Positions 5,219-45,986 of a stretch of 64,000 bases of DNA are shown piece by piece. The stretch spans positions 1,605,317-1,669,316 of the forward strand of contig CP067345.1 of assembly GCA_020641055.1 (NCBI GenBank), in the 5' to 3' direction. Origin of the DNA: Clostridioides sp. ES-S-0010-02. Lineage in GTDB: Bacteria > Bacillota > Clostridia > Peptostreptococcales > Peptostreptococcaceae. A program made the translations under genes and the position numbers. The notes under the pieces were generated by a model. It was given only the letters and a program-made list of their open reading frames with translations, was not told the DNA's origin and searched no databases. Each line of letters opens with the position of its first letter. The stretch's first letter is position 1.

Positions 5219-5267
5219 TTTACATCCCCCTAAAAAACTTTCATAAAAACAAAAAGAAAATATCTTT

Positions 5268-5357
5268 TTGGCAACTGGCTGACATAACTCATAAGATACT
5301 TTATAAGTCTTAGTCCCTATAGCTTTGCGTCACTAAATTTCTCTAGTTTTGCCGATT
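5268..5357 (-). promoter_or_regulatory. c-di-GMP-I (GEMM) riboswitch
   Basis: Read on the minus strand, the segment has the GEMM-I hallmarks in order: CGGCAAAACTAG, GAAA loop, TAGTGACGCAAAGCTA, GGGACTAAG, a P3 arm, ATGTCAGCCAG and a closing GTTGCC that pairs with GGCAA in P1. Spacing and conserved ACGCAAAGC match the family. After P1 comes AAAAAGATATTTTCTTTTTG, a weak hairpin with a T-rich end that could act as the expression platform. The controlled gene is the 58-residue ORF ending at 5042. Confidence 0.9.
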
Positions 5358-6016
5358 TAGTTTTATTCTACACCTATATAATACTAGAATATAATCCATT
5401 ATTCAATATTATTATGAGAAAATAAAAAATATTTTAAATTATGAAATAAATTTTGCTCAAAAAAATAAAATGAATGAATAAATTATATGGAAATACTTCT
5501 ATATGGTTGTGTGTTAAAAAGTGCCTATTATTAATTTAGGCTAGAAAAAGCTTTAGGAAATGATAGGATATGAAAAAAGAAGAATTTTAAAAAGCTTATA
5601 TGGTAAAAATTGGATAAAAAGGTTTGCTTTAATTCTCTTGCATATAAGACTCTATTAAGATAGAATTTATTTATGCATAAATTGACTTACACTATAGTGT
5701 GGTAATAAAACAAAGAAAGTATTTTAGCTTTGAAACAAAAGCTTTTTAAAAAATATACATAAAAATTTAATATCAAAAGTGATTTAAAGATTAGTCTAGT
5801 TTATTTCCCCAAAAAGTATTATAATGTTCTTTATGTGTAAAAAAGAATATTCATAATTAGATACTACTCAAGATAAAAAATATTAATATATTGTCGTTAT
5901 TAATAATATAATAAAAAATTTAATGAATTATATTATTAAATCTAACTTATAATATTTTAAAAAAGATTAGAAAATTAACATAAAATGTAAAAATTCACAA
6001 TTTTTTCATAAAGTAT
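5358..6016. other. gene-poor region with a MerR-type promoter-like palindrome
   Basis: No coding region was supported. At 5682-5711 a TTGACT is followed by the palindrome ACACTATAGTGT and an AT-rich stretch, the layout of MerR-family promoters in which the operator lies between -35 and -10. No merR-like gene and no downstream ORF accompany it. Part of 5510-5660 reads like a gene remnant with several stops, but I could not assign it. Confidence 0.4.
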
Positions 6017-28222: not shown

Positions 28223-29524
28223 ATGAATTTAGAACAGGATGTTTTAATAATTGGAAGTGGTGTTTCGGGACTATATTGTGCATTAAATTTGGATAAAAAT
28301 TTAAATGTGTTAGTAGTATCAAAATCTACAATTGAAAACAACAATACATATCTTGCACAAGGAGGAATTTCAACTGCTAGAAATATTGATGATATAGAAT
28401 CTTTTGTAGAAGATACAATGAAGGCTGGTCAGTATAAAAATAGGGTTGAAGCAGTCAAAGTTCTTGCAGATGAATCTATAGAAAATGTAGGTCAAATAGT
28501 AGACTATGGTATGCCTTTAGACAAAGAAAATGGAGAGATAGACTATACAAGAGAGGGAGCTCATAGCGTAAATAGAATAGTTCATAGCAAAGATAATACA
28601 GGAGAAGTTGTTTTTAAGACTCTATTAAAAGAAGCTAAAACTAGGGAAAATATAACTCTTATAGAAGATGCTTATCTTTTAGATATATTAAAAGATGGTA
28701 ATAAGTGTATAGGAGCTAGAATTTTTAAGTCTCAAAAAGAAATTCATATCTTTTCAAAGGTAGTAGTTTTAGCTACAGGTGGAATTGGTGGACTTTTTAA
28801 AAATTCTACGAATCAAAGACACCTTACAGGAGATGGAATTGCTATAGCATTAAGAAATAATATTAAAATAGAAAATTTAGAATATATTCAAATACACCCA
28901 ACAGCTTTCTATGAAGAAAATAGTGAAGGTAGAAGGATGCTTATATCTGAATCTTTGAGAGGAGAAGGGGCTAAACTTTTAAACAAAAACAAAAAAAGAT
29001 TTGTAGATGAACTTCTTCCAAGAGATGTAGTTTCAAAAGCTATTTTTGAACAAATGGAAAAAGATGATTTGCCTTATGTATATTTAGATGCAACACACTT
29101 AGATAGTGAATATTTAATCAATAGATTTTCTTTTATATACAATGAATGTTTAAATAGAGGAACAGATATAACCAAAGAATATATAAAAGTATCTCCTGCA
29201 CAACATTATTTTATGGGAGGGATACATGTTGATTTAGATTCAAAAACATCTATGGAGAACCTATATGCAGTGGGTGAAATTAGTTGTACAGGTGTTCATG
29301 GAGCTAATCGACTAGCAAGTAATTCACTACTTGAAGGTCTTGTATTTTCAAAAAGAGCAGCTAAAAATATAAACTCAGTTATAGGTAGTATAGAAGTGAA
29401 GTTTATAGAAGTAGCAAATATAGAGGTGGATGTAGAAAAAATAAAGGAAGAGAATAAAATATTAGTTATAAAAGAAATAGAAAGAACAAGTGAGGATTTT
29501 GGCGATGAATTATTTGATTATTGA
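28223..29524 (+). CDS. nadB: L-aspartate oxidase
   Basis: An FAD enzyme of 433 residues that makes iminoaspartate for NadA. It has the N-terminal GSGVSGLYCAL dinucleotide site, SKSTIENNNTYLAQGGIS, the substrate region HRIVHSKD-like NRIVHSKDNTGE, and GEISCTGVHGANRLASNSLLEGL. It is about 100 residues shorter than E. coli NadB, lacking most of the C-terminal helical domain, as in other clostridial proteins. Under anaerobic conditions fumarate is the likely acceptor. The 3' end overlaps nadC. Confidence 0.93.
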   Translation: MNLEQDVLIIGSGVSGLYCALNLDKNLNVLVVSKSTIENNNTYLAQGGISTARNIDDIESFVEDTMKAGQYKNRVEAVKVLADESIENVGQIVDYGMPLDKENGEIDYTREGAHSVNRIVHSKDNTGEVVFKTLLKEAKTRENITLIEDAYLLDILKDGNKCIGARIFKSQKEIHIFSKVVVLATGGIGGLFKNSTNQRHLTGDGIAIALRNNIKIENLEYIQIHPTAFYEENSEGRRMLISESLRGEGAKLLNKNKKRFVDELLPRDVVSKAIFEQMEKDDLPYVYLDATHLDSEYLINRFSFIYNECLNRGTDITKEYIKVSPAQHYFMGGIHVDLDSKTSMENLYAVGEISCTGVHGANRLASNSLLEGLVFSKRAAKNINSVIGSIEVKFIEVANIEVDVEKIKEENKILVIKEIERTSEDFGDELFDY

Positions 29525-30341
29525 TAAAATGATACAAGATGCTTTAATAGAAGATGTTCCAAGTGAGGATATAACAACTAATTCTATTGTAGATGAAGAT
29601 TCTAAGTCTACTGTAGATTTAATTTGTAAACAAGATGGTATAATAGCGGGTTTAGGTGTGTTTAAAAGGGTTTTTGAAATACTTGGAGATGTAGAGGTAG
29701 AGTTGTATAAAAATGATGGCGATAGGGTAAATAATGCAGAAAAGATAGCTGTATTAACTGGAAATACTAGAAACTTACTTGTGGGAGAACGTGTAGCGTT
29801 AAATTATTTACAAAGAATGAGCGGAATAGCTACTGCTACAAGTATGTATGTGGAAAAACTTGAAGGTACAAATACTAAACTATTGGATAGTAGAAAAACA
29901 ATACCTAATCTTAGAATTTTAGACAAATATTCTGTAAAAGTAGGTGGAGGATGCAATCATAGATTTAATTTATCTGATGGAATATTACTTAAAGATAATC
30001 ATATTGGAGCTGCAGGTGGCGTCAAAAACGCAGTTGAATTAGCTAGAAAAAACACATCTTTTGTCAGAAAAATAGAGGTAGAAGTGGAAACTCTAGAAAT
30101 GGTAAAAGAAGCTATAGAAGCTAAAGCAGATATAATAATGTTAGATAATATGAATTTGGAGACAGCAAAAAAGGCTATAGAAATGATAAATGGGAGAGCA
30201 GTTGTAGAGTTTTCTGGAAATGTAAATTTAGATACAATAGAATCTATAGGAAAAATTGGTGTTGATGTTGTCTCTGTGGGAGCGCTTACACACTCAGTGA
30301 AAGCACTTGATATAAGTATGAAAAACTTAAGAAATATATAA
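29505..30341 (+). CDS. nadC: quinolinate phosphoribosyltransferase (carboxylating)
   Basis: A 278-residue enzyme converting quinolinate and PRPP to nicotinate mononucleotide. Family motifs include EDVPSEDITT, ERVALNYLQRMSGIAT, DSRKTIPNLR, GGGCNHRFNLSDGILLKDNH and VEVETLE. I chose ATG 29505, five codons inside the open frame, because GAGGA precedes it. The start then overlaps the nadB end by 20 bases, so translation is coupled. Confidence 0.94.
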   Translation: MNYLIIDKMIQDALIEDVPSEDITTNSIVDEDSKSTVDLICKQDGIIAGLGVFKRVFEILGDVEVELYKNDGDRVNNAEKIAVLTGNTRNLLVGERVALNYLQRMSGIATATSMYVEKLEGTNTKLLDSRKTIPNLRILDKYSVKVGGGCNHRFNLSDGILLKDNHIGAAGGVKNAVELARKNTSFVRKIEVEVETLEMVKEAIEAKADIIMLDNMNLETAKKAIEMINGRAVVEFSGNVNLDTIESIGKIGVDVVSVGALTHSVKALDISMKNLRNI

Positions 30342-30646: not shown

Positions 30647-30979
30647 ATGAAAGTAGCTTATATTTTTAGTAGTACTAACTCACATAAAATTCTAGACAAA
30701 ATGATAATACCACAATTAGAACAAGGAACTCATGGAGTAGATGTCCTAGGTATGTTTTTCTTTATGGATAATACCTTATTTTTGTCTAAAGGTAACCCAG
30801 TGGGAGAAAGATTAAGTAAATTGCATGAAAAGACAGATATGATAATAATGGCTTGTGACCAGTGTGCTATAGAAAGAGGGATAGAGGATAATTTGGTCGA
30901 TGGAGCTACAATTGGATGTTTCCCAAATTTATATGCTTGTTTAGGTGGTGCAGGTGTAGACCAAGTTATAACATTATAA
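30647..30979 (+). CDS. saoD: DsrE-related protein SaoD
   Basis: A 110-residue DsrE/DsrF-like sulfur-relay protein: N-terminal strand MKVAYIFSSTNSH and a Cys pair in MACDQCAIERGI near the middle, the position of the sulfur-carrying Cys in DsrE proteins, plus two further Cys (IGCFPNLYACLGGAG). It is the first gene of the selenoprotein-rich cluster. The name follows its match in position and type to the sao gene set of C. difficile as I recall it. A hairpin separates it from saoT, so it may be made in larger amounts. Confidence 0.7.
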   Translation: MKVAYIFSSTNSHKILDKMIIPQLEQGTHGVDVLGMFFFMDNTLFLSKGNPVGERLSKLHEKTDMIIMACDQCAIERGIEDNLVDGATIGCFPNLYACLGGAGVDQVITL

Positions 30980-30994
30980 AATCTTGCGGAATAC

Positions 30995-31027
30995 AATCCA
31001 TAGAAAAAATTTTTCTGTGGATTATTT
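30995..31027 (+). terminator. attenuator-like hairpin between saoD and saoT
   Basis: AATCCATAGAAAAA pairs with TTTTTCTGTGGATT (one G-T pair), followed by ATTTT. It lies inside the presumed operon and may reduce read-through to the selenoprotein genes. Confidence 0.55.
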
Positions 31028-31066
31028 TAAGTAAAAGATAAATTGTTTAGAGTAGGGGATGAACAA

Positions 31067-31324
31067 ATGTCTAAAATTTTAGTTGAATTCATAAATACTT
31101 GACCATCTTGTGATGAGCATGGAGTGTTTATAAAAAAAATTTCTGAGAAGTATACTAACAAGTTAGAAGTAAAACTTTACCAAGCAGGTAAAGATTTCTC
31201 ATATGTCAAGAAGTATGGAATCATAACAAAAGGAACCTTAATAATAAACCAAAAAAAGAAGTATGATAGATTAAACAAAGATACCATTGAAAAGGCAATA
31301 GTAGAAGCTATAAATAATAGTTAA
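31067..31324 (+). CDS. saoT: thioredoxin-like selenoprotein SaoT (UxxC)
   Basis: Read with the TGA at 31100-31102 as selenocysteine, the frame gives 85 residues starting MSKILVEFINTU. Sec12 and Cys15 form a U-P-S-C redox motif at the end of the first strand, the position of CxxC in thioredoxin/glutaredoxin folds. The remainder has a thioredoxin-like order of helix and strand (DFSYVKKYGIITKGTLIINQ, with a cis-Pro position not clear). A caller that stops at TGA sees only a fragment from 31124. It starts at ATG 31067 after AGGGGATGAACAA. Likely role: reducing partner for the other Sao proteins. Confidence 0.85.
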
Positions 31325-31350
31325 AAGTTTAAAAATTAGGAGCAGTAAAA

Positions 31351-32436
31351 ATGAATATATTAGAAATTGTTTTAAGTGGAGTGAAAAACACTGTGGTAGC
31401 TTCTATAGTTACACTAAATGGAGCATCAGGATGGCTTATGATAAGTTTTATATTGGCAGGAGTTCTTCACAATGTTTTAACGCCAAAAAGGTTTCAAAAG
31501 CAACTTGGAAATAAGAAGTTTTCTTCTCTGATTAAAAGCACTATTTCAGGAATGTTTTTACCAATTTGTAGTTGTGGCGTAATACCATTGGGCATAAGTA
31601 TGTATTATTCGGGAGCATACTTAGGGCCAGTACTTGCCTTTATGACATCAACTCCAATAATAAATCCAATAGCTGTAGTTCTTTGTTTAGGTCTTTTGGG
31701 ACCTAAAATTACAATCATTTATCTTATATCTGGATTTTTAGTACCATTTTTAGTAGGAGTTTTGGGGAATACCTTTGGAAAAGAAGAATTATTTTTGCAA
31801 AATGACTCAGATGAAGAAGCTATAGAATTAGAAGAAGAAAAGAGAAGCTTTATAGAAAATATGGTTGATGGGCTTAAATGGTCCTTTGGAGAGTTAGCAC
31901 TTACTATTAGTAAATATGTAATAATGGGAATGCTTTTTGCGGGATTTATAACAACAATTTTTCCAAATAGTATAATTCAAAAATACTTAGGAAATCCAGG
32001 TTTACTATCTCTTGGAAGTATATCAATACTTGCATGTGTTATGTATGTATGTGCTGTAGGACATATTCCATTTATAGCAGCCCTTGTTGCAAGTGGAGCA
32101 TCTCCTGGGATAGCGATAACATTTTTGATAGCTGGTGCAGCGACAAACTTACCAGAACTTATAAGTATGTGTAAACTTATTGGAAAAAGAACTGTTGTTA
32201 TATATTCAGTTACACTAACACTCTGTTCAATAATAATAGGTTATATAACCAATTTACTTTTGGCAAACAACAATACTGTGAATTTAGAGACAACAAATTC
32301 TTCAATACAATTAGCAAATAAACTAATGTTAAATATACCAGATAGTTTTGAATATATATGCACTATTTTGATTATTTTATTTGCACTTAAAGCAGTAATA
32401 CCAAAGATGAAAGAGGTCATAGGAAATCATGCTTAA
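31351..32436 (+). CDS. saoE: efflux permease SaoE (ArsP/UPF0718-like)
   Basis: A 361-residue membrane protein of the predicted-permease family that includes the organoarsenical exporter ArsP. It has about eight to ten helices in two blocks, the conserved Cys-rich turn FLPICSCGVIPLG and FMTSTPIINP in the first block, and GAATNLPELISM in the second. In ArsP-like proteins the Cys pair binds the metalloid. Here it probably exports a metal or organometal product. AGGAGCAG precedes the ATG, and its end overlaps saoC by eight bases. Confidence 0.8.
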   Translation: MNILEIVLSGVKNTVVASIVTLNGASGWLMISFILAGVLHNVLTPKRFQKQLGNKKFSSLIKSTISGMFLPICSCGVIPLGISMYYSGAYLGPVLAFMTSTPIINPIAVVLCLGLLGPKITIIYLISGFLVPFLVGVLGNTFGKEELFLQNDSDEEAIELEEEKRSFIENMVDGLKWSFGELALTISKYVIMGMLFAGFITTIFPNSIIQKYLGNPGLLSLGSISILACVMYVCAVGHIPFIAALVASGASPGIAITFLIAGAATNLPELISMCKLIGKRTVVIYSVTLTLCSIIIGYITNLLLANNNTVNLETTNSSIQLANKLMLNIPDSFEYICTILIILFALKAVIPKMKEVIGNHA

Positions 32437-32887
32437 AAAGGTAGTTATAATATCATGTGTAGTAATTGCATTAATAGTCTTATCAAGGGTAGTAGATGAT
32501 AACCTTAAACAAAATGACTCTATTCCAAATGTAAATCAAGAAACATTAACATATTTCAAGAAAAATCATAAGGAAGATATAATAACCTGTGCTGAAGAAG
32601 ACTTAAATAATGATGGAAAAAAAGATTTAGTAGTTATATATAAAAAAGGTAATAATTCAAATGAAATGGCAGTGGTAGTTTCTGATGAGGAGAGCCATTA
32701 TATAACAAAACCAATACCAGCACCTATAGAGAATCAAACTATAACTTTTAAAAATATTGATGAGAAGCTACCAATAGAAGTAATAGTGTCAGGTTCTAAA
32801 AATGGCAATGTAGGATACGCTATTTATAGAGTAGAGGGTAAAAAACTTGTCGCTTTATTTGGAGAAGATATGGACAAGTGTTGCTAA
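32429..32887 (+). CDS. saoC: membrane-anchored protein with C-terminal Cys-Cys, SaoC
   Basis: A 152-residue protein with one N-terminal membrane helix (about 5-20) and an extracytoplasmic part with an EF-hand-like DLNNDGKKDL repeat region. It ends MDKCC, so the last two residues are Cys. Such a tail is a soft-metal ligand or a redox tail; in related proteins one Cys can be Sec. It overlaps the saoE stop, and saoX begins 36 bases after it. No other family was recognised. Confidence 0.75.
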   Translation: MLKKVVIISCVVIALIVLSRVVDDNLKQNDSIPNVNQETLTYFKKNHKEDIITCAEEDLNNDGKKDLVVIYKKGNNSNEMAVVVSDEESHYITKPIPAPIENQTITFKNIDEKLPIEVIVSGSKNGNVGYAIYRVEGKKLVALFGEDMDKCC

Positions 32888-32922
32888 AAATAAAAATAAT
32901 ACATAAAAGAGGGGAAATTGAA

Positions 32923-34011
32923 ATGAAAGTATCTAAAAAGATTCAAGCATTAATCTTAGTTAGTGCAGTGGGGGCATTTATATTAACTGGATGTAGCAGT
33001 AAACCAAAGGAAGAGGGGAAAAAAGCTGGAAAAGATGATTATGCGATAACAGTAGGGTATTATAATTGTGACCATATGACAGCTGGACCAGTAGCAGAAG
33101 CAGCAGGAATATATAAAGATTTAGGTCTTAATGTAAAAACTGTTGGGAATGGTAAAGTTCCTGAAGCCATGGCAGCAGGTAAGATGGATGCTGGTTATAT
33201 AGGAACAAAGGGTCTAGTAGGAGCTATACCTAAAGGTTCACCAATAACAATAGCAGCAAATAATCACACTGGTGGGTCTGAATATTTAATAGTTTCAAAT
33301 GATATAAAAGAACCTAAGGATTTAGTGGGCAAAAAAATTGCAACAGATATGAGTGATTTCTTATGGATAAGTGATTATGGTCCAGAAACAGGTTTACCAA
33401 CTGACCCATCAAAATATGAAGTTGTAAATATGGATTCAGATAAAGATAAATATTTAGCTCTTAAAACTGGAAAGATACAAGCATTTACATCTTGTGACCC
33501 TTGGGGTTCTGTAGCTGAAAATGATGGAGTAGGAAAAATAATAGCATCAACTCAATATAAAGAAAAAGCTAATAATAAAGAATATAACTGTTGTTCATTC
33601 TCATTAAATAAAAACTTTATAAAAGAGCACCCAGACTTAGCAAAAAAATTGGTTTTAGCTCATACTAAAGCAATAGAATATATATATACAAATCCAGCAG
33701 AAGCAGCTAAAATATTTGCAAAATATTATAATGTAGAAGAAGAAGTTGCACTTAGAACTATTTATAAAAAGACAGTTGGAGAAGGTAGAACGCTTACTTG
33801 GAAAGTTACAGGAGAAGAATACAAAAACAATTTACAAATGTATAAAGATTTAAAGGCATTAGATGAGATACCTAAATATGAAGATACAATTGATACAAGC
33901 TTATTAGATTCTTGTGGGGCAGATGACTTTGATAAGTTTATAAAAGAAAAAGTTAATCCCAAATTTCCAGAAGGTATGAGTTATGAAGATTGGAAAGCAA
34001 AGGTATTATAA
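32923..34011 (+). CDS. saoX: ABC transporter substrate-binding lipoprotein (SaoX)
   Basis: A 362-residue lipoprotein with lipobox LTGC and a SsuA/NMT1-type substrate-binding fold (PVAEAAGIYKDLGLNV, GKVPEAMAAGKMDAGYIG, YEDWKAK). Cys in YYNCDHMTAG, near the start of the mature domain, could contact a soft metal. ATG 32923 is chosen since AGAGGGGAAATTGAA precedes it; the open frame extends 45 bases upstream into saoC. It is one of two different binding proteins for the same importer; the symbol is from memory and less certain than the function. Confidence 0.75.
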   Translation: MKVSKKIQALILVSAVGAFILTGCSSKPKEEGKKAGKDDYAITVGYYNCDHMTAGPVAEAAGIYKDLGLNVKTVGNGKVPEAMAAGKMDAGYIGTKGLVGAIPKGSPITIAANNHTGGSEYLIVSNDIKEPKDLVGKKIATDMSDFLWISDYGPETGLPTDPSKYEVVNMDSDKDKYLALKTGKIQAFTSCDPWGSVAENDGVGKIIASTQYKEKANNKEYNCCSFSLNKNFIKEHPDLAKKLVLAHTKAIEYIYTNPAEAAKIFAKYYNVEEEVALRTIYKKTVGEGRTLTWKVTGEEYKNNLQMYKDLKALDEIPKYEDTIDTSLLDSCGADDFDKFIKEKVNPKFPEGMSYEDWKAKVL

Positions 34012-34015
34012 ATAA

Positions 34016-34813
34016 ATGGAGAGAATAAAAAATATAATAATACTTTTTGTCATTATTTTAGGAAGTATATTTATAATATTTTTTAATTTTGAAGATAAAG
34101 AAGAAATAAAAGGAAAATTAAGAATAGGGGTATCTGATGATACCTCTGGTTTTGTAATAAATTATATGATAAACAAAGATTACTTTGAAAGCATAAAAGT
34201 AAGTGATGTAATGGAGACTTTTACAATTAATGATTGCTGAGCAAGTACAATGCAATGGGCTCTGAGTTCAGAGGAAATAGATATAGCAATCATATGTAAA
34301 GATGCAGCAAAACAGTATATAAATGCAACTAGTGAGTTTGAAATTGTTGGTACAGTAGTTCAAAATTCAGATATATTTTTATTAAAGAAGAACAATCCTC
34401 AAAAAATAGGAATAATTCAAAATAGAAATTATCAATCTGAATTAGTAAAAAAATACTATGAAAATATAAAAGTTTCTCCATTATTAGGGACAGCACTAGC
34501 ATATGGGCTAGAAAGTAATTTAGTAGATGGTGTTGTAATAGACTGTATAAAAGCAATTGGATTAGAAGGCGAAAAAAAATCTACAGCTAAATTAGGTGAC
34601 TATGATACCTATGTATTAGTTGTGAATAAGGAGTTTGAGAAAAGCAAGTCGTATAGTGATTTTATAAAACTATACAATAAAAGTGTTGATAATTTAAGGA
34701 AAGAAACTATATTTAAAAAAGCATTAAAAGAGTATAAGAATATAAGAAATATAGATATGGAGGAAATAAGAAGTTGGAAATTAAAATTTCTAAAGATAGA
34801 GGAGATACAATAG
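34016..34813 (+). CDS. saoB: selenocysteine-containing substrate-binding protein SaoB
   Basis: Reading TGA at 34238-34240 as Sec joins two fragments into one 265-residue frame with a single N-terminal membrane anchor. Cys74-Sec75 (TINDCUASTMQWAL) sits where a substrate-binding protein of the NMT1/SsuA type contacts its ligand; the downstream part (EIDIAIICKDAAKQY, FELVGTV-like) fits that fold. The frame continues exactly after the TGA with no other stop. A CTCTGA/TCAGAG hairpin follows at 34260-34273. The 3' end overlaps saoP by 40 bases. Confidence 0.82.
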
Positions 34814-35580
34814 CTAAGAAAAAATCTAAAAGTAGTATGGACATTTTATATAAAATAATACTTTTAGTTAGTATATTTTTAGTCTGGCATTTTGCAGCAA
34901 AAGATATAGGGAGTTCTTTATTACTCCCAATGCCAGTAGATGTAATAAAAGGTTTCTTTTACTGTGTGACAGATGTAGAGACAGTGACTAATCTGTTTAT
35001 AACATTGCAAAGAGTGCTTAAAGGATTTATGTATGCATTATTGTTTGGACTTCCAATAGGATTTATTATGGGATTTTCTAAGACTTTTGAAAAGCTTTTA
35101 TCTCCAGTAGTAGATTCTGTAAGACAAGTTCCTATAATGGCGTGGGTTCCTCTTACAATAGTATGGTTTGGTATAGGGGATGGTCCAACAATATTTTTAA
35201 TAGCTTTTTCAGGAGTTTTTCCTATAATTTTAAATACTATTCAAGGTGTAAGAGCAATATCAAAGGATTATTATAATGCAGCTAGAAGTATGGGGGCATC
35301 GCCAATTGTAATATTTGCAAATGTAATAGTACCAGCATCTCTTCCAGATATATTGACTGGTTCAAGAATTGCCATAAGTACAGGATGGATGTCTGTTATC
35401 TGAGCCGAGTTCATAGCTACGAGTGCCGGTCTCGGTTACTCCATGGTACAAGCTCAGACATTGATGCATACAGATGTATTAATTGGGCTTATGATATTTG
35501 CAGCTTTAATAGGATTTATAATAGATAGAGTACTAAAATTTATAAATAAAATCCTTTGTAGATGGAGGTTTGCAGATTAA
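34774..35580 (+). CDS. saoP: ABC transporter permease selenoprotein SaoP
   Basis: A 268-residue SsuC/TauC-like permease with about six helices, readable in full only if TGA 35401-35403 is Sec210. The site lies in GWMSVIUAEFIATSAGLGY, the EAA-loop region where relatives have Ala (VAAEMIAASSGLG). The segment right after the TGA is far more GC-rich than its surroundings and can fold (GCCGAG/CTCGGT), as expected for a SECIS element inside the coding region. The TTG start follows GGAGG. The stop TAATGA overlaps the saoA start. Confidence 0.83.
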
Positions 35581-36332
35581 TGAAATTAAGTGTGAGAGAT
35601 ATAAATAAAACATTTGTAAATAGCAAAATACATACAAAGGTTTTGGAAGATATAAGTATAGATATAGAAAATGGTCAATTTGTTTGTCTTTTAGGACCCT
35701 CAGGATGTGGAAAAACAACTTTACTTACTATAATAGGTGGATTTCAAAAGGCAGAAAGTGGAGATGTCTTTATAAATGATAAAATAGTTAAAAAACCAGG
35801 TATAGATAGAGCTTTCATATTTCAAAACTACGCTCTATTTCCTTGGAAGACTATAAGGGGCAATGTTTTATTTCCTATGAAACAGCAGAAAATACCGAAA
35901 GAAAAGAGAGAAGAAATGTTGGAAGAGCTTTTGGTTATGTCTGATTTAAAAGGGAAAGAAAATCTGTTTCCTCATCAATTGTCTGGAGGAATGAAACAAA
36001 GAGTTGCTATGATAAGAGCTTTAGCCTGTAATCCTGAAGTATTATTAATGGATGAACCACTAGGAGCAGTTGATTTTCAAATGAGACAAAACTTACAAGA
36101 AGAACTTGAAAGAATATGGACAAAAAAGAAAATAACTGCATTAATGGTAACTCATGATGTTGATGAAGCTGTATATATGAGTGATAGAGTTATAGTAATG
36201 TCAAGGGATAAGGGAAGAATTCTTGACGATATAAATATAGACATTCCAAGACCTAGGGCTAGAGGGAGCCAAGAATATGAAGAATATAAGAATAAATTAA
36301 CTGACATTTTGTCAAAATGTTATGATGTTTAA
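35580..36332 (+). CDS. saoA: ABC transporter ATP-binding protein SaoA
   Basis: A 250-residue SsuB/TauB-type ATPase with Walker A GPSGCGKTT, Q-loop FQNYALFPW, signature LSGGMKQR, Walker B LLMDEPLGAVD and H-loop VTHDVDEA. I start at ATG 35580, inside the saoP stop (TAATGA), because GGAGG lies upstream. It energises the importer formed with SaoP and the two binding proteins. Confidence 0.9.
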   Translation: MKLSVRDINKTFVNSKIHTKVLEDISIDIENGQFVCLLGPSGCGKTTLLTIIGGFQKAESGDVFINDKIVKKPGIDRAFIFQNYALFPWKTIRGNVLFPMKQQKIPKEKREEMLEELLVMSDLKGKENLFPHQLSGGMKQRVAMIRALACNPEVLLMDEPLGAVDFQMRQNLQEELERIWTKKKITALMVTHDVDEAVYMSDRVIVMSRDKGRILDDINIDIPRPRARGSQEYEEYKNKLTDILSKCYDV

Positions 36333-36344
36333 AGAGGAGTAGAA

Positions 36345-36986
36345 ATGAGTCAAATAGAAAAATACAATAGTTTAAATGACACACAACGAAAGATAAGAAT
36401 ATCTATTATGGATATGATAATAGATAATTGTTCTAGTGTTACACTTAAAGAAGTAATTGAACATATAAGTATAAATTTAAGCTTAGAAAAAGAATATCTA
36501 GAAACTACACTGAACCATTTTATTGATAAAAATATAATGGTTGTTGATGGAGATAGCATAAATTTTATATATCCAGTATCAGCATTACCTACTAATCATA
36601 AAGTTACATTAAGTGATAATAGAAGCTTCAGTGCAATGTGTGCTATAGATGCAATAGGAACTTCTTGCACATTTAATCAAGATGTAAGAATAAATTCTAT
36701 TTGTAGTGCCACAGGTAAAGAAATAGAAATATTTATAAAAGATGAAAAAATTGAATATGTAAACAATCCAGATTTAAGAGTGCTTCATATAAACCTTGAT
36801 AAGCATTCAAATTGGGCAGCAAGTTGCTGAAATGTAATGAATTTCTTCTGGACGAAGAATGATTTTGATGCATGGACAAAAGAAGCTGGATTATCAGATG
36901 ATGAAGATATATATTGCTTGGACATTAATGAAGCAATAGTAGAATCGTATAAAATATTTAAACTTGAACAAAAAGTATTAGTATAG
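36345..36986 (+). CDS. saoL: MerB-like organometallic lyase selenoprotein SaoL
   Basis: Reading TGA 36828-36830 as Sec gives a 213-residue MerB homologue. MerB (organomercurial lyase) uses Cys96, Asp99 and Cys159 to cleave carbon-mercury bonds. Here CAIDAIG matches the Cys96-x2-Asp99 segment, and WAASCUNVMNFFWT matches MerB's FCCHVHFFAS, with Cys161 at the catalytic Cys159 and Sec162 at Cys160. An N-terminal winged-helix-like part is present as in MerB. The C-terminal segment after the TGA (DFDAWTKEAG...DINEAI) matches MerB's tail. A perfect TTCTTC/GAAGAA hairpin lies 13 bases after the TGA. Predicted to break carbon-metal bonds; the metal is unknown. Confidence 0.87.
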
Positions 36987-37113: not shown

Positions 37114-37935
37114 TTAGATAGCTTTATTAAGTATATATTTGTTTATAACCTTTGCAACTCCATTTTCATTGTTGGTATCAGTAACATAATCAGCAATTTC
37201 TTTTATGCTACTACGTGCATTTCCCATAGCCACACCAAGCCCTGCATATTTTATCATATGTTGGTCATTTTCTTCATCACCAACAGCAATAGCATTTTCT
37301 ATAGGTATATTTAGATTATTACATAATGTTTGAAGTGCAGTACCCTTATTAGTAGTTTTACCTAAAAATTCTAAATAAAAGGGAGCAGACCTTACTATAG
37401 TATATCTATTGAATAAATTCTTAGGAAGTTGTTTTATAATTTCTTCTAATCTTTCTGGTTCATCAACTATCATAACCTTACAGATTTTAATAGATTTATC
37501 AATTTTATCTTTATGTATATATTTAACTTCTATATCATTCAATTTAGCTTCATGAAGTGTGTACTTACCAGGAATTTCGTTTGGAGTAACTAAATTTGTC
37601 ATGGTATTTATGTGTATTTTGGTATTATATTTTTTGCAAACATTGTTGTATATAAAATCAAAGTCGTCTAAAGTCATCTCTACATTATGTATTATTTTTT
37701 CACTTTTAACCTCTTGAATCATAGCTCCATTGAAGCATATAACATAATCACCTTCATCTGTTAGATTTAATTGATTTAAAAGTCCTTTGACACCAGGAAG
37801 GGGTCTACCTGTTGTTATAACTACTTTAGCTCCAGCTTTCTTTGCTTCTTGAATAGATTCAAATACTTCAGGAGTAACTTTTCTTTTTGTATTTAATATT
37901 GTTCCATCAATATCTAGTGCGATTAATTTGTACAT
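37114..37935 (-). CDS. Cof-type HAD-IIB phosphatase
   Basis: A 273-residue sugar-phosphatase-like HAD protein. It has the DxD nucleophile motif LDIDGTILN, motif II TTGRP, the type IIB cap, and motif III/IV KGTALQTLC...AVGDEENDQHMI. These enzymes dephosphorylate sugar phosphates or flavin and pyridoxal phosphates. GGAGGTTGATAT precedes the ATG. Single gene, convergent with saoL. Confidence 0.88.
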   Translation of the reverse strand: MYKLIALDIDGTILNTKRKVTPEVFESIQEAKKAGAKVVITTGRPLPGVKGLLNQLNLTDEGDYVICFNGAMIQEVKSEKIIHNVEMTLDDFDFIYNNVCKKYNTKIHINTMTNLVTPNEIPGKYTLHEAKLNDIEVKYIHKDKIDKSIKICKVMIVDEPERLEEIIKQLPKNLFNRYTIVRSAPFYLEFLGKTTNKGTALQTLCNNLNIPIENAIAVGDEENDQHMIKYAGLGVAMGNARSSIKEIADYVTDTNNENGVAKVINKYILNKAI

Positions 37936-40451: not shown

Positions 40452-40580
40452 TCCGGGGGAAGAGTATGGGAGACTGCTTTATAAAAAGCGACCGAAGGGA
40501 CAAATTTAATCTTACATACCCAGAAGATTAAATGAAATTCTCAGGTAAAGATGACTGTACTTGGACGGGTCTCTGAAAAT
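40452..40580 (+). promoter_or_regulatory. glycine riboswitch (single aptamer)
   Basis: The core has the glycine aptamer hallmarks in order: GGGAGACTGC, CGACCGAAGGGACAA, a peripheral stem, AAATTCTCAGGTAAA, GACTGT and ACGGGTCTCTG, which closes with the GGGAGA side. Only one complete aptamer is visible rather than the common tandem pair. It is followed by a terminator and then grdX, so it acts on transcription of the whole grd operon. An on-switch with glycine would make sense because the operon consumes glycine. Confidence 0.88.
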
Positions 40581-44675: not shown

Positions 44676-45986
44676 ATGGGAAAACTAAGAGTAGTACATT
44701 ATATTAATCAGTTCTTTGCTGGTATAGGTGGAGAAGAAAAAGCTGATACTAAGCCACATGTGGCAGAAACTTTACCTCCAATAAGTTTACAACTTGATAA
44801 ATTATTAGGTGAAGATATTGAAGTAGTTGGTACAGTAGTGTGCGGAGACAGTTATTTCAATGAAAATATAGATAGCGCAAGTGAAGAAGTTTTAGCAATG
44901 ATAAAAGGTTTTGAACCACAACTTTTTATAGCTGGGCCTGCCTTTAATGCTGGTAGATATGGGGTTGCTGCTGGAACAATAACTAAAGTTGTAAAAGATG
45001 CTTTAAGTATACCAGCTTTAACAGGTATGTACATTGAAAATCCAGGTGCAGATATGTTCAAAAAGGATGTTTATGTAGTAGAAACTTCTGATTCTGCAGC
45101 AGGTATGAGAAAAGCACTTCCTAAGATAGCTAAACTTGCAATAAAACTTGCTAAAGGTGAAGAAATTGGAACTCCTAAAGAAGAAGGATACATAGCTAGA
45201 GGAATAAGAGTTAACTACTTCCATGAAGACAGAGGTTCTAAGAGAGCTGTTGACATGTTAATTAAGAAAATAAAAGGCGAGTCATTTGAAACTGAATATC
45301 CAATGCCAAATTTTGATAGAGTTGACCCAAGTAATCCTGTAAAAGACTTATCAAAATGCAAAATAGCTTTAGTTACTTCTGGTGGTATAGTTCCTAAAGG
45401 AAATCCAGATAGAATAGAATCTTCTTCAGCTTCTAAATATGGAACTTATTCTTTAGCAGGAGTTATGGATTTAACAGAAGAAACTTATGAAACTGCACAT
45501 GGTGGATATGACCCAGTATATGCAAATTTAGATGCAGATAGAGTATTACCTGTTGATGTTCTTAGAGACTTAGAAAAAGAAGGTGTAATAGGAAAATTAC
45601 ATGAAACTTTCTACACAACTGTAGGTAATGGTACATCTGTTGCAAACTCTAAAAAATATGCTTCTGAAATTGGAGCAGCGTTGGTAGCTGATGGTGTAGA
45701 TGCAGTAATCTTAACTTCTACATGAGGTACTTGTACTCGTTGCGGTGCAACGATGGTAAAAGAAATAGAAAAAACTGGACTTCCAGTAGTTCATATGTGT
45801 ACAGTAGTACCTATTTCGTTAACAGTAGGGGCTAACAGAATAGTTCCAACTATAGCAATACCTCATCCACTTGGAAATCCAGCACTTGACCCTACAGAAG
45901 AAAAAGCCCTAAGAAGAGGCCTTGTAGAAAAAGCATTAAACGCTTTAACTACAGAAGTAGATGGTCAAACAGTATTTGAAAAATAA
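44676..45986 (+). CDS. grdB: glycine reductase selenoprotein B gamma subunit
   Basis: A 436-residue selenoprotein, read through TGA 45723-45725 as Sec350 in LTSTUGTCTRCGA, a UxxCxxC motif. It takes the glycine-derived Schiff base and transfers the carboxymethyl group to GrdA. A perfect CGTTGC-GGT-GCAACG hairpin lies 13 bases after the TGA, a clear bacterial SECIS candidate. The ribosome site AAAAGGGGTGA is about nine bases from the ATG. Confidence 0.95.

What the first reader, a model, noticed from the sequence alone, without database searches (positions are those of the whole stretch)
30647..36986. Nine-gene selenoprotein-rich organometallic cluster (SAO-type)
Nine plus-strand genes sit tightly packed, with overlaps at saoE/saoC, saoB/saoP and saoP/saoA. 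Four of them (31067, 34016, 34774, 36345) are interrupted only by an in-frame TGA, with conserved frame and family sequence on both sides. Parts: MerB-like lyase, ABC importer with two binding proteins, ArsP-like exporter, UxxC thioredoxin-like protein, Cys-Cys-ended protein, DsrE-like protein. Seen: the TGAs and homologous context. Known: MerB breaks carbon-mercury bonds with Cys ligands, ArsP exports organoarsenicals, Sec binds soft metals strongly. Inference: import an organometal or metal complex, break it with SaoL, and pass the metal through Sec/Cys sites to storage or export. I recall such a gene set being named SAO, so it may be partly described by bioinformatics; the natural substrate appears untested.
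Basis: partly seen in the sequence, partly recalled or inferred. Interest (0 to 1): 0.95.

Follow-up and report, generated by a model that had tools for sequence, protein, structure and literature searches.

The report
Selenium-rich organometal-handling gene cluster (SAO)
A gut bacterium's genome carries nine neighbouring genes, four of which appear to use the rare selenium amino acid, for a published but apparently untested system thought to take up a carbon-metal compound and break it apart.

The parts
30647..30979 (+). saoD, DsrE-related protein; Cys70, Cys73, Cys91 conserved
   Evidence: NF040732 192.4 bits, cut-off 169; Cys in 27/27 loci
30995..31023 (+). terminator-like hairpin between saoD and saoT
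   Evidence: consensus scan only
31067..31324 (+). saoT, thioredoxin-like selenoprotein, UPSC motif; Sec codon TGA 31100-31102
   Evidence: NF040730 126.7 bits, cut-off 65; Sec 26, Cys 16, gap 1 of 43
31113..31131 (+). bSECIS-like hairpin of saoT
   Evidence: -3.6 kcal/mol
31351..32436 (+). saoE, ArsP_1/PF03773 efflux-type permease; Cys73, Cys75, Cys234
   Evidence: NF040736 559.5 bits, cut-off 325; PF03773 177.8 bits, cut-off 32.3
32429..32887 (+). saoC, protein with hydrophobic N-terminus (by eye) ending Cys-Cys-COOH
   Evidence: NF040734 182.3 bits, cut-off 80; CC in 41/41 loci
32923..34011 (+). saoX, substrate-binding protein (SsuA/NMT1 type); Cys49, Cys191, Cys223-224
   Evidence: NF040735 502.2 bits, cut-off 300; position 191 is Cys 45, Sec 3 of 48
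34016..34813 (+). saoB, substrate-binding selenoprotein with hydrophobic N-terminus (by eye), Cys74-Sec75; TGA 34238-34240
   Evidence: NF040727 258.9 bits, cut-off 140; Sec 34, Cys 10 of 44
34260..34273 (+). bSECIS-like hairpin of saoB
   Evidence: -4.6 kcal/mol
34774..35580 (+). saoP, ABC permease with Sec210 inside a long helix; TTG start; TGA 35401-35403
   Evidence: NF040733 431.8 bits, cut-off 295; Sec 43, Cys 3 of 46; model helix 177-215
35425..35436 (+). bSECIS-like hairpin of saoP
   Evidence: -3.6 kcal/mol
35580..36332 (+). saoA, ABC ATPase
   Evidence: NF040729 439.7 bits, cut-off 360
36345..36986 (+). saoL, MerB-like lyase: Cys99, Asp102, Cys120, Cys161, Sec162; TGA 36828-36830
36843..36859 (+). 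bSECIS-like hairpin of saoL
   Evidence: -3.9 kcal/mol

Best explanation
This is the SAO system: an ABC importer (SaoX and SaoB bind, SaoP and SaoA move) brings a soft-metal or metalloid organic compound into the cell, coordinated along the way by Cys/Sec sites that include a Sec in a membrane helix. SaoL, a MerB-type enzyme in which Sec has taken the place of the second catalytic Cys (MerB Cys159), holds the metal between Cys99 and Sec162, with the extra Cys161 beside it, while Asp102 gives a proton to the carbon, splitting the carbon-metal bond. SaoT and SaoD reduce or relay the freed metal(loid); SaoE exports it; SaoC's Cys-Cys end may accept it outside. In many relatives an ATP-driven double-cubane reductase or a molybdenum reductase sits at the cluster, so the compound probably needs a reduction step first; in the window's genome the double-cubane gene lies elsewhere. 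Shown: gene content, Sec sites, MerB fold and active-site positions, SelB and reductase association. Inferred: direction of transport, substrate class, chemistry, relay and export.
Against: No substrate, expression or phenotype is shown. 75Se gels of C. difficile JIR8094 in TY medium gave three bands assigned to GrdB, PrdB and GrdA (PMC5677094, passages), so SAO selenoproteins are not abundant in those extracts. No mer or ars family is among the 25 commonest families of 88 immediate neighbours. SaoX and SaoP are closest to sulfonate, nitrate and bicarbonate importers. Importing a toxic organometal only to export its metal is odd as detoxification. SaoL scores far below the MerB models' own cut-offs (51.2 versus 193). 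A single-sequence alignment to 1s6l shifts by a gap and pairs Cys161-Sec162 with Cys159-Cys160 instead.
Confidence: 0.6

Rival explanations
1. Selenium acquisition or salvage: SAO imports a selenium compound, and SaoL, SaoD and SaoT release selenium from carbon for Sec synthesis.
For: SelB is present in 31/31 SAO genomes. The double-cubane protein is linked provisionally to selenium metabolism in PMC10418091 (results section), and 2-hydroxyglutaryl-CoA dehydratase-type genes are associated with selenium genes in PMC5322559 (passages). Sao genes are marked among selenium genes of methyl-selenide clusters (figure legend). SaoD is DsrE-like.
Against: A system for getting selenium that itself needs Sec in four proteins is circular. 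MerB chemistry needs an electrophilic metal (recalled). SelB is required anyway by the Sec genes, so co-occurrence is not specific. No UroD or corrinoid family is among the 25 commonest neighbour families (rarer ones are not listed).
Confidence: 0.13
2. Organomercury or organoarsenic resistance in the classical sense: SAO is a detoxification operon like mer or ars.
For: MerB fold and active site; PF03773 exporter; an ArsM-like methyltransferase near SaoL in L098.
Against: No MerA, MerR or ArsR among the 25 commonest families of 88 immediate neighbours (rarer families are not listed). SaoX is over cut-off in 6 of 8 Clostridioides genomes, more like a resident gene set than a mobile one, though mobility was not tested. 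HgcA is over cut-off in 7 of 54 SAO/SaoL genomes and not in the window's genome.
Confidence: 0.15
3. Nutritional metal or metallophore uptake: the substrate is a metal complex needed by the cell, and SaoL removes the metal from a ligand rather than from carbon.
For: Importer architecture; no mer or ars family among the commonest neighbours; reductases as neighbours.
Against: SaoE is of an efflux-type permease family; Cys/Sec ligands favour soft metals, which are rarely nutrients; invariant Asp102 fits protonolysis.
Confidence: 0.1

Closest known systems
SAO system (Haft & Gwadz 2023, J Bacteriol 205:e0025922; seen only as a citation)
   Same: Same nine named NCBIfam families, in the species that the paper's title names; the review PMC13188914 lists SaoB, C, L, P, T and X as selenoproteins and calls SAO an operon with six selenoprotein genes (passages).
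   Different: No difference in kind. The window's locus has four Sec sites; its SaoC and SaoX are Cys forms.
MerB / MerB2 organomercurial lyase (PF03243; PDB 1s6l, 3f0o, 5c17)
   Different: Sec at the place of catalytic Cys159, preceded by an extra Cys (Phe in MerB, Thr in MerB2) and followed by Asn where MerB has Cys160; below the MerB equivalog cut-offs.
NrtBCD / CmpBCD / SsuABC-type importers
   Same: SaoX, SaoP, SaoA families and SaoP fold.
   Different: Sec in the permease helix in place of Ala; an extra binding protein with a Cys-Sec pair (SaoB).
ArsP / SO_0444 efflux permeases (PF03773)
   Same: SaoE is a member of PF03773.
   Different: Own equivalog SaoE; below the SO_0444 cut-off (193.3 versus 300).
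Double-cubane-cluster reductase (NF040772)
   Same: At or inside SAO clusters in 20 of 55 loci and present in every SAO genome of the order sample (31/31).
   Different: Not in the window's cluster; the window genome's copy lies at C1:2468935-2470053.

Membership tests
SAO system | All named components over their curated cut-offs | tested here: met
   9 of 9
SAO system | Sec-coding TGA in SaoT, SaoB, SaoP, SaoL | tested here: met
   (by sequence; incorporation not shown)
SAO system | Sec machinery in the same genome | tested here: met
   SelB in G000, best E 3.3e-104; selA, selC, selD not searched
SAO system | Acts on an organometallic compound | not testable with these tools
   no assay; full text of Haft & Gwadz not held
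MerB family (PF03243) | Pfam domain above gathering score | tested here: met
   90.2 versus 27 bits
MerB family | Two chalcogen ligands and an Asp at the catalytic positions | tested here: met
   C99, D102 and U162 in 51/51, aligned to MerB C96, D99, C159; the second ligand is Sec, not Cys
MerB family | MerB equivalog cut-off (PRK13239 193, lyase_MerB 200) | tested here: not met
   51.2 and 48.5 bits: MerB-like, not a MerB ortholog
ArsP_1 / PF03773 | Pfam domain above gathering score | tested here: met
   177.8 versus 32.3 bits
SO_0444 Cu/Zn exporter | Equivalog cut-off 300 | tested here: not met
   193.3 bits
mer resistance operon | MerA / MerR next to the lyase | tested here: inconclusive
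   not among the 25 commonest families of 88 neighbours from 32 loci; rarer families not listed
Bacterial selenoprotein genes | bSECIS hairpin after the TGA | tested here: met
   but plain folding alone is weak (z 0.30 to -1.18), Rfam shows no SECIS here, and many Cys sites also have a hairpin

The most novel reading that the evidence does not exclude
SAO is a reductive-protonolytic pathway, not a resistance operon. An imported oxidised organometalloid is first reduced by an ATP-driven double-cubane enzyme (or a molybdenum reductase), giving those reductases a physiological setting, and is then split by SaoL, in which Sec has wholly replaced MerB's catalytic Cys159. SaoL is a Sec-obligate lyase family in its own right that also works alone in Desulfobacterota-type bacteria, with a membrane Fe-S/VTT/YdjY module in place of the SAO transporter.
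Probability: 0.3. Interest if true: 0.75.

Novelty: already known. Interest (0 to 1): 0.45.

Why it matters
SAO packs several selenoproteins into one transport-and-catalysis gene set, in a human gut bacterium, with an untested substrate. An invariant Sec at the catalytic position of a MerB-like lyase, and a nearly invariant one in an ABC membrane helix, are hard to explain except by soft-metal chemistry, so the system is a clean test of what Sec adds over Cys in binding metals. The link to double-cubane reductases, whose natural substrate I know of no report of, would make two open questions testable together.

Tried and rejected
Sequencing error, frameshift or read-through of real stops: rejected, because the same TGA stands at the same column in relatives and codons after it change mostly at third positions against close relatives (8 of 8 comparisons; 1 of 4 against the distant L041).

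Rfam for SECIS in the cluster: none at E up to 5; one unrelated weak match. Plain minimum-energy folding of 51-nt windows gave z 0.30 to -1.18. Only the position-constrained hairpin test with synonymous shuffles separated Sec sites: SaoL 44/44 sites with a hairpin, mean -4.49 versus -1.12 kcal/mol; SaoP weakest (34/36; -3.46 versus -1.49; median rank 0.14). Cys sites were not clean: a hairpin also follows 7 of 9 in SaoB (-2.66 versus -1.87), 2 of 2 in SaoP (-2.65 versus -1.90) and 12 of 16 in SaoT (-2.45 versus -1.36), where eight loci have a Sec two residues on. The window's own four sites dropped out through a naming slip in my script (found); they are covered.

A gapped single-sequence alignment (1s6l) gives the other pairing; the ungapped ones to MerB2 and the C160S chain agree with Cys159.

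One SAO-specific double-cubane ortholog: rejected; SAO-adjacent copies lie in several lineages (24 adjacent rows and 21 non-adjacent rows of my choosing, quick tree, long branches meet).

HgcA partnership: 7 of 54 genomes over cut-off; no general link.

Upstream regulator site: a 12-bp palindrome before saoD in the window is not kept as a palindrome in five Clostridioides relatives.

Left out of counts: L103 (Nitrospirae, 23% identity, did not reach my SaoL threshold), L066 (not SAO), and 14 loci that repeat contigs already held (judged by equal contig length). L088 and L101 are separate records but nearly the same.

Not done: structures of SaoB, SaoC, SaoX; active-site distances (no coordinates are given); searches for selA, selC, selD.
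Full report
OBSERVATION. The window lies at 1605317-1669316 of a 4.26-Mb single-contig genome. The nearest named SaoL relatives are Clostridioides difficile records at 83-86% identity, so the genome is Clostridioides, probably C. difficile (inference). Nine plus-strand genes stand at 30647-36986. Four frames (T, B, P, L) are broken by a single TGA each, at 31100, 34238, 35401 and 36828.

IDENTITY. All nine proteins pass the curated NCBIfam cut-off of their own Sao family (9 of 9). Pfam gives DsrE, ArsP_1, NMT1, BPD_transp_1, ABC_tran and MerB for D, E, X, P, A and L; T is below the thioredoxin cut-offs, and C and B have no Pfam family above cut-off.

PRIOR ART. [quoted passage not shown] That paper and Haft & Tolstoy 2025 are not held. 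A preprint on methyl-selenide gene clusters marks Sao genes among its selenium-associated genes (PMC10418091: legends; results section; passages). Searches for SAO gene names, for 'selenocysteine-assisted organometal' and for the Haft title (nine papers, six listed, of which I opened four) brought up no experimental test of SAO; subscription papers are not covered.

SELENOCYSTEINE. L103 never reached threshold, which leaves 55 SAO or SaoL loci. Counts: SaoL Sec 51/51; SaoP Sec 43, Cys 3 of 46; SaoB Sec 34, Cys 10 of 44; SaoT Sec 26, Cys 16, one gap of 43, with Sec two residues on in 8 of the Cys loci; SaoX Cys 45, Sec 3 of 48 at position 191; SaoC Cys-Cys 41/41. The HMM search read TGA as Cys, so Cys forms were not selected against. 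As I understand the species-wide scan, one of its two patterns (CCN[IV]MNF) matches only Cys codons at the SaoL site, yet no Cys SaoL appeared; the scan is incomplete by design. Three loci with Cys in T, B and P (L088, L101, L102; the first two nearly identical) still have Sec in SaoL.

After the TGAs, more than half of the base differences fall on third positions in 8 of 8 comparisons with L053 and L055, and in 1 of 4 with L041. bSECIS-like hairpins are more stable than in synonymous shuffles: SaoL -4.49 versus -1.12 kcal/mol over 44 distinct sites, SaoB -3.50 versus -0.68 over 27, SaoT -4.42 versus -1.53 over 24, SaoP -3.46 versus -1.49 over 36 (window not included; window sites). Cys sites show a smaller excess but often a hairpin too. 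Unconstrained folding and Rfam did not show them. SelB is over cut-off in 31/31 SAO genomes and 177/266 others of the order sample (Fisher p 1.2e-5, not corrected for relatedness), and in 23 of 24 genomes of the wider set, L103's genome included; the exception, G689, holds a truncated match.

SURROUNDINGS. In the window SAO lies between genes that look like nadB and nadC (28223-30341) and a HAD hydrolase on the minus strand (37114-37935; names by eye). Elsewhere the commonest immediate neighbour is a double-cubane-cluster reductase, NF040772: 13 of 88 neighbour proteins taken from 32 of the 55 loci. It lies within 1.1 kb of an SAO or SaoL gene in 20 of 55 loci, 12 of 33 groups by my own labels, in several cases overlapping or between SAO genes. 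On a quick tree of 24 adjacent and 21 chosen non-adjacent rows adjacency needs 6-8 gains or losses against 15.3 in shuffles, so repeated gain is likely but not proved. In the order sample the family occurs in 31/31 SAO genomes and 105/177 SelB-positive genomes without SAO (p 6.5e-7, uncorrected; one of the 138 listed genomes is below the cut-off). The window genome has one copy elsewhere with an activase-like gene beside it (by eye), and so do the two Clostridioides genomes without SaoX have a copy, so it is not specific to SAO there. A PhsA-like molybdenum reductase lies near SAO genes in 8 loci, within 150 bp in seven and 516 bp in one. No mer or ars family is among the 25 commonest.

SAOL WITHOUT SAO. 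Seven loci from Geobacteraceae, Desulfobulbaceae, Desulfatitalea and unclassified Proteobacteria carry SaoL alone. Their genomes have no SaoP and no SaoE over cut-off (0 of 8 each, L103's genome included; weaker permease matches occur in 4 and 7 of 8; mostly MAGs, so absence is provisional). SaoL there lies near a dicluster Fe-S/VTT membrane protein in six of seven, and a YdjY-type protein is present in five of seven, including the seventh (families, with NF045663 below its cut-off).

READING. Gene content, Sec placement, the MerB-type site with Sec as ligand and the helix Sec fit uptake and protonolytic cleavage of a soft-metal(loid) organic compound, as the SAO name proposes. The reductase neighbours suggest that the compound is reduced first, and the lack of mer/ars partners among the common neighbours speaks against a plain resistance operon. 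No tool here can name the substrate. Published 75Se labelling of C. difficile in TY medium shows three bands assigned to GrdB, PrdB and GrdA (PMC5677094, passages), so the SAO selenoproteins must be poorly expressed there, poorly extracted, or not made.

VERDICT. As a system it is already known; function remains open. The Cys159 position, the reductase link and stand-alone SaoL may or may not be in the two papers I could not read.

Noticed in passing
window 45726-45763: SECIS_4 (66.2 bits) on the plus strand about 9 kb downstream of SAO, after a glycine riboswitch at 40457-40567: probably the glycine reductase operon with its own Sec gene.
   Followed up: no
window 5267-5363: c-di-GMP-I riboswitch on the minus strand.
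   Followed up: no
L079, L081, L089, L090, L094, L095, L098: Sec-containing SaoL without the SAO transporter, beside a dicluster Fe-S/VTT membrane protein and/or a YdjY-type protein; an ArsM-like methyltransferase near SaoL in L098.
   Followed up: partly
L050, L051, L075, L087, L091, L092, L099, L102: PhsA-like molybdopterin oxidoreductase close to SAO genes.
   Followed up: partly
L040, L050, L051, L076, L077, L102: Methyl-accepting chemotaxis-type protein (named by eye) within 0.3-2.5 kb of SAO genes, hinting that the substrate or a related signal is sensed.
   Followed up: no
G470 and G480 (same genus): Two of eight Clostridioides genomes sampled lack SaoX over cut-off although they have SelB.
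   Followed up: no
L061 and L062: Beside the SAO cluster lies a second SsuA-like ABC importer (SBP, permease, ATPase) of unknown substrate.
   Followed up: no
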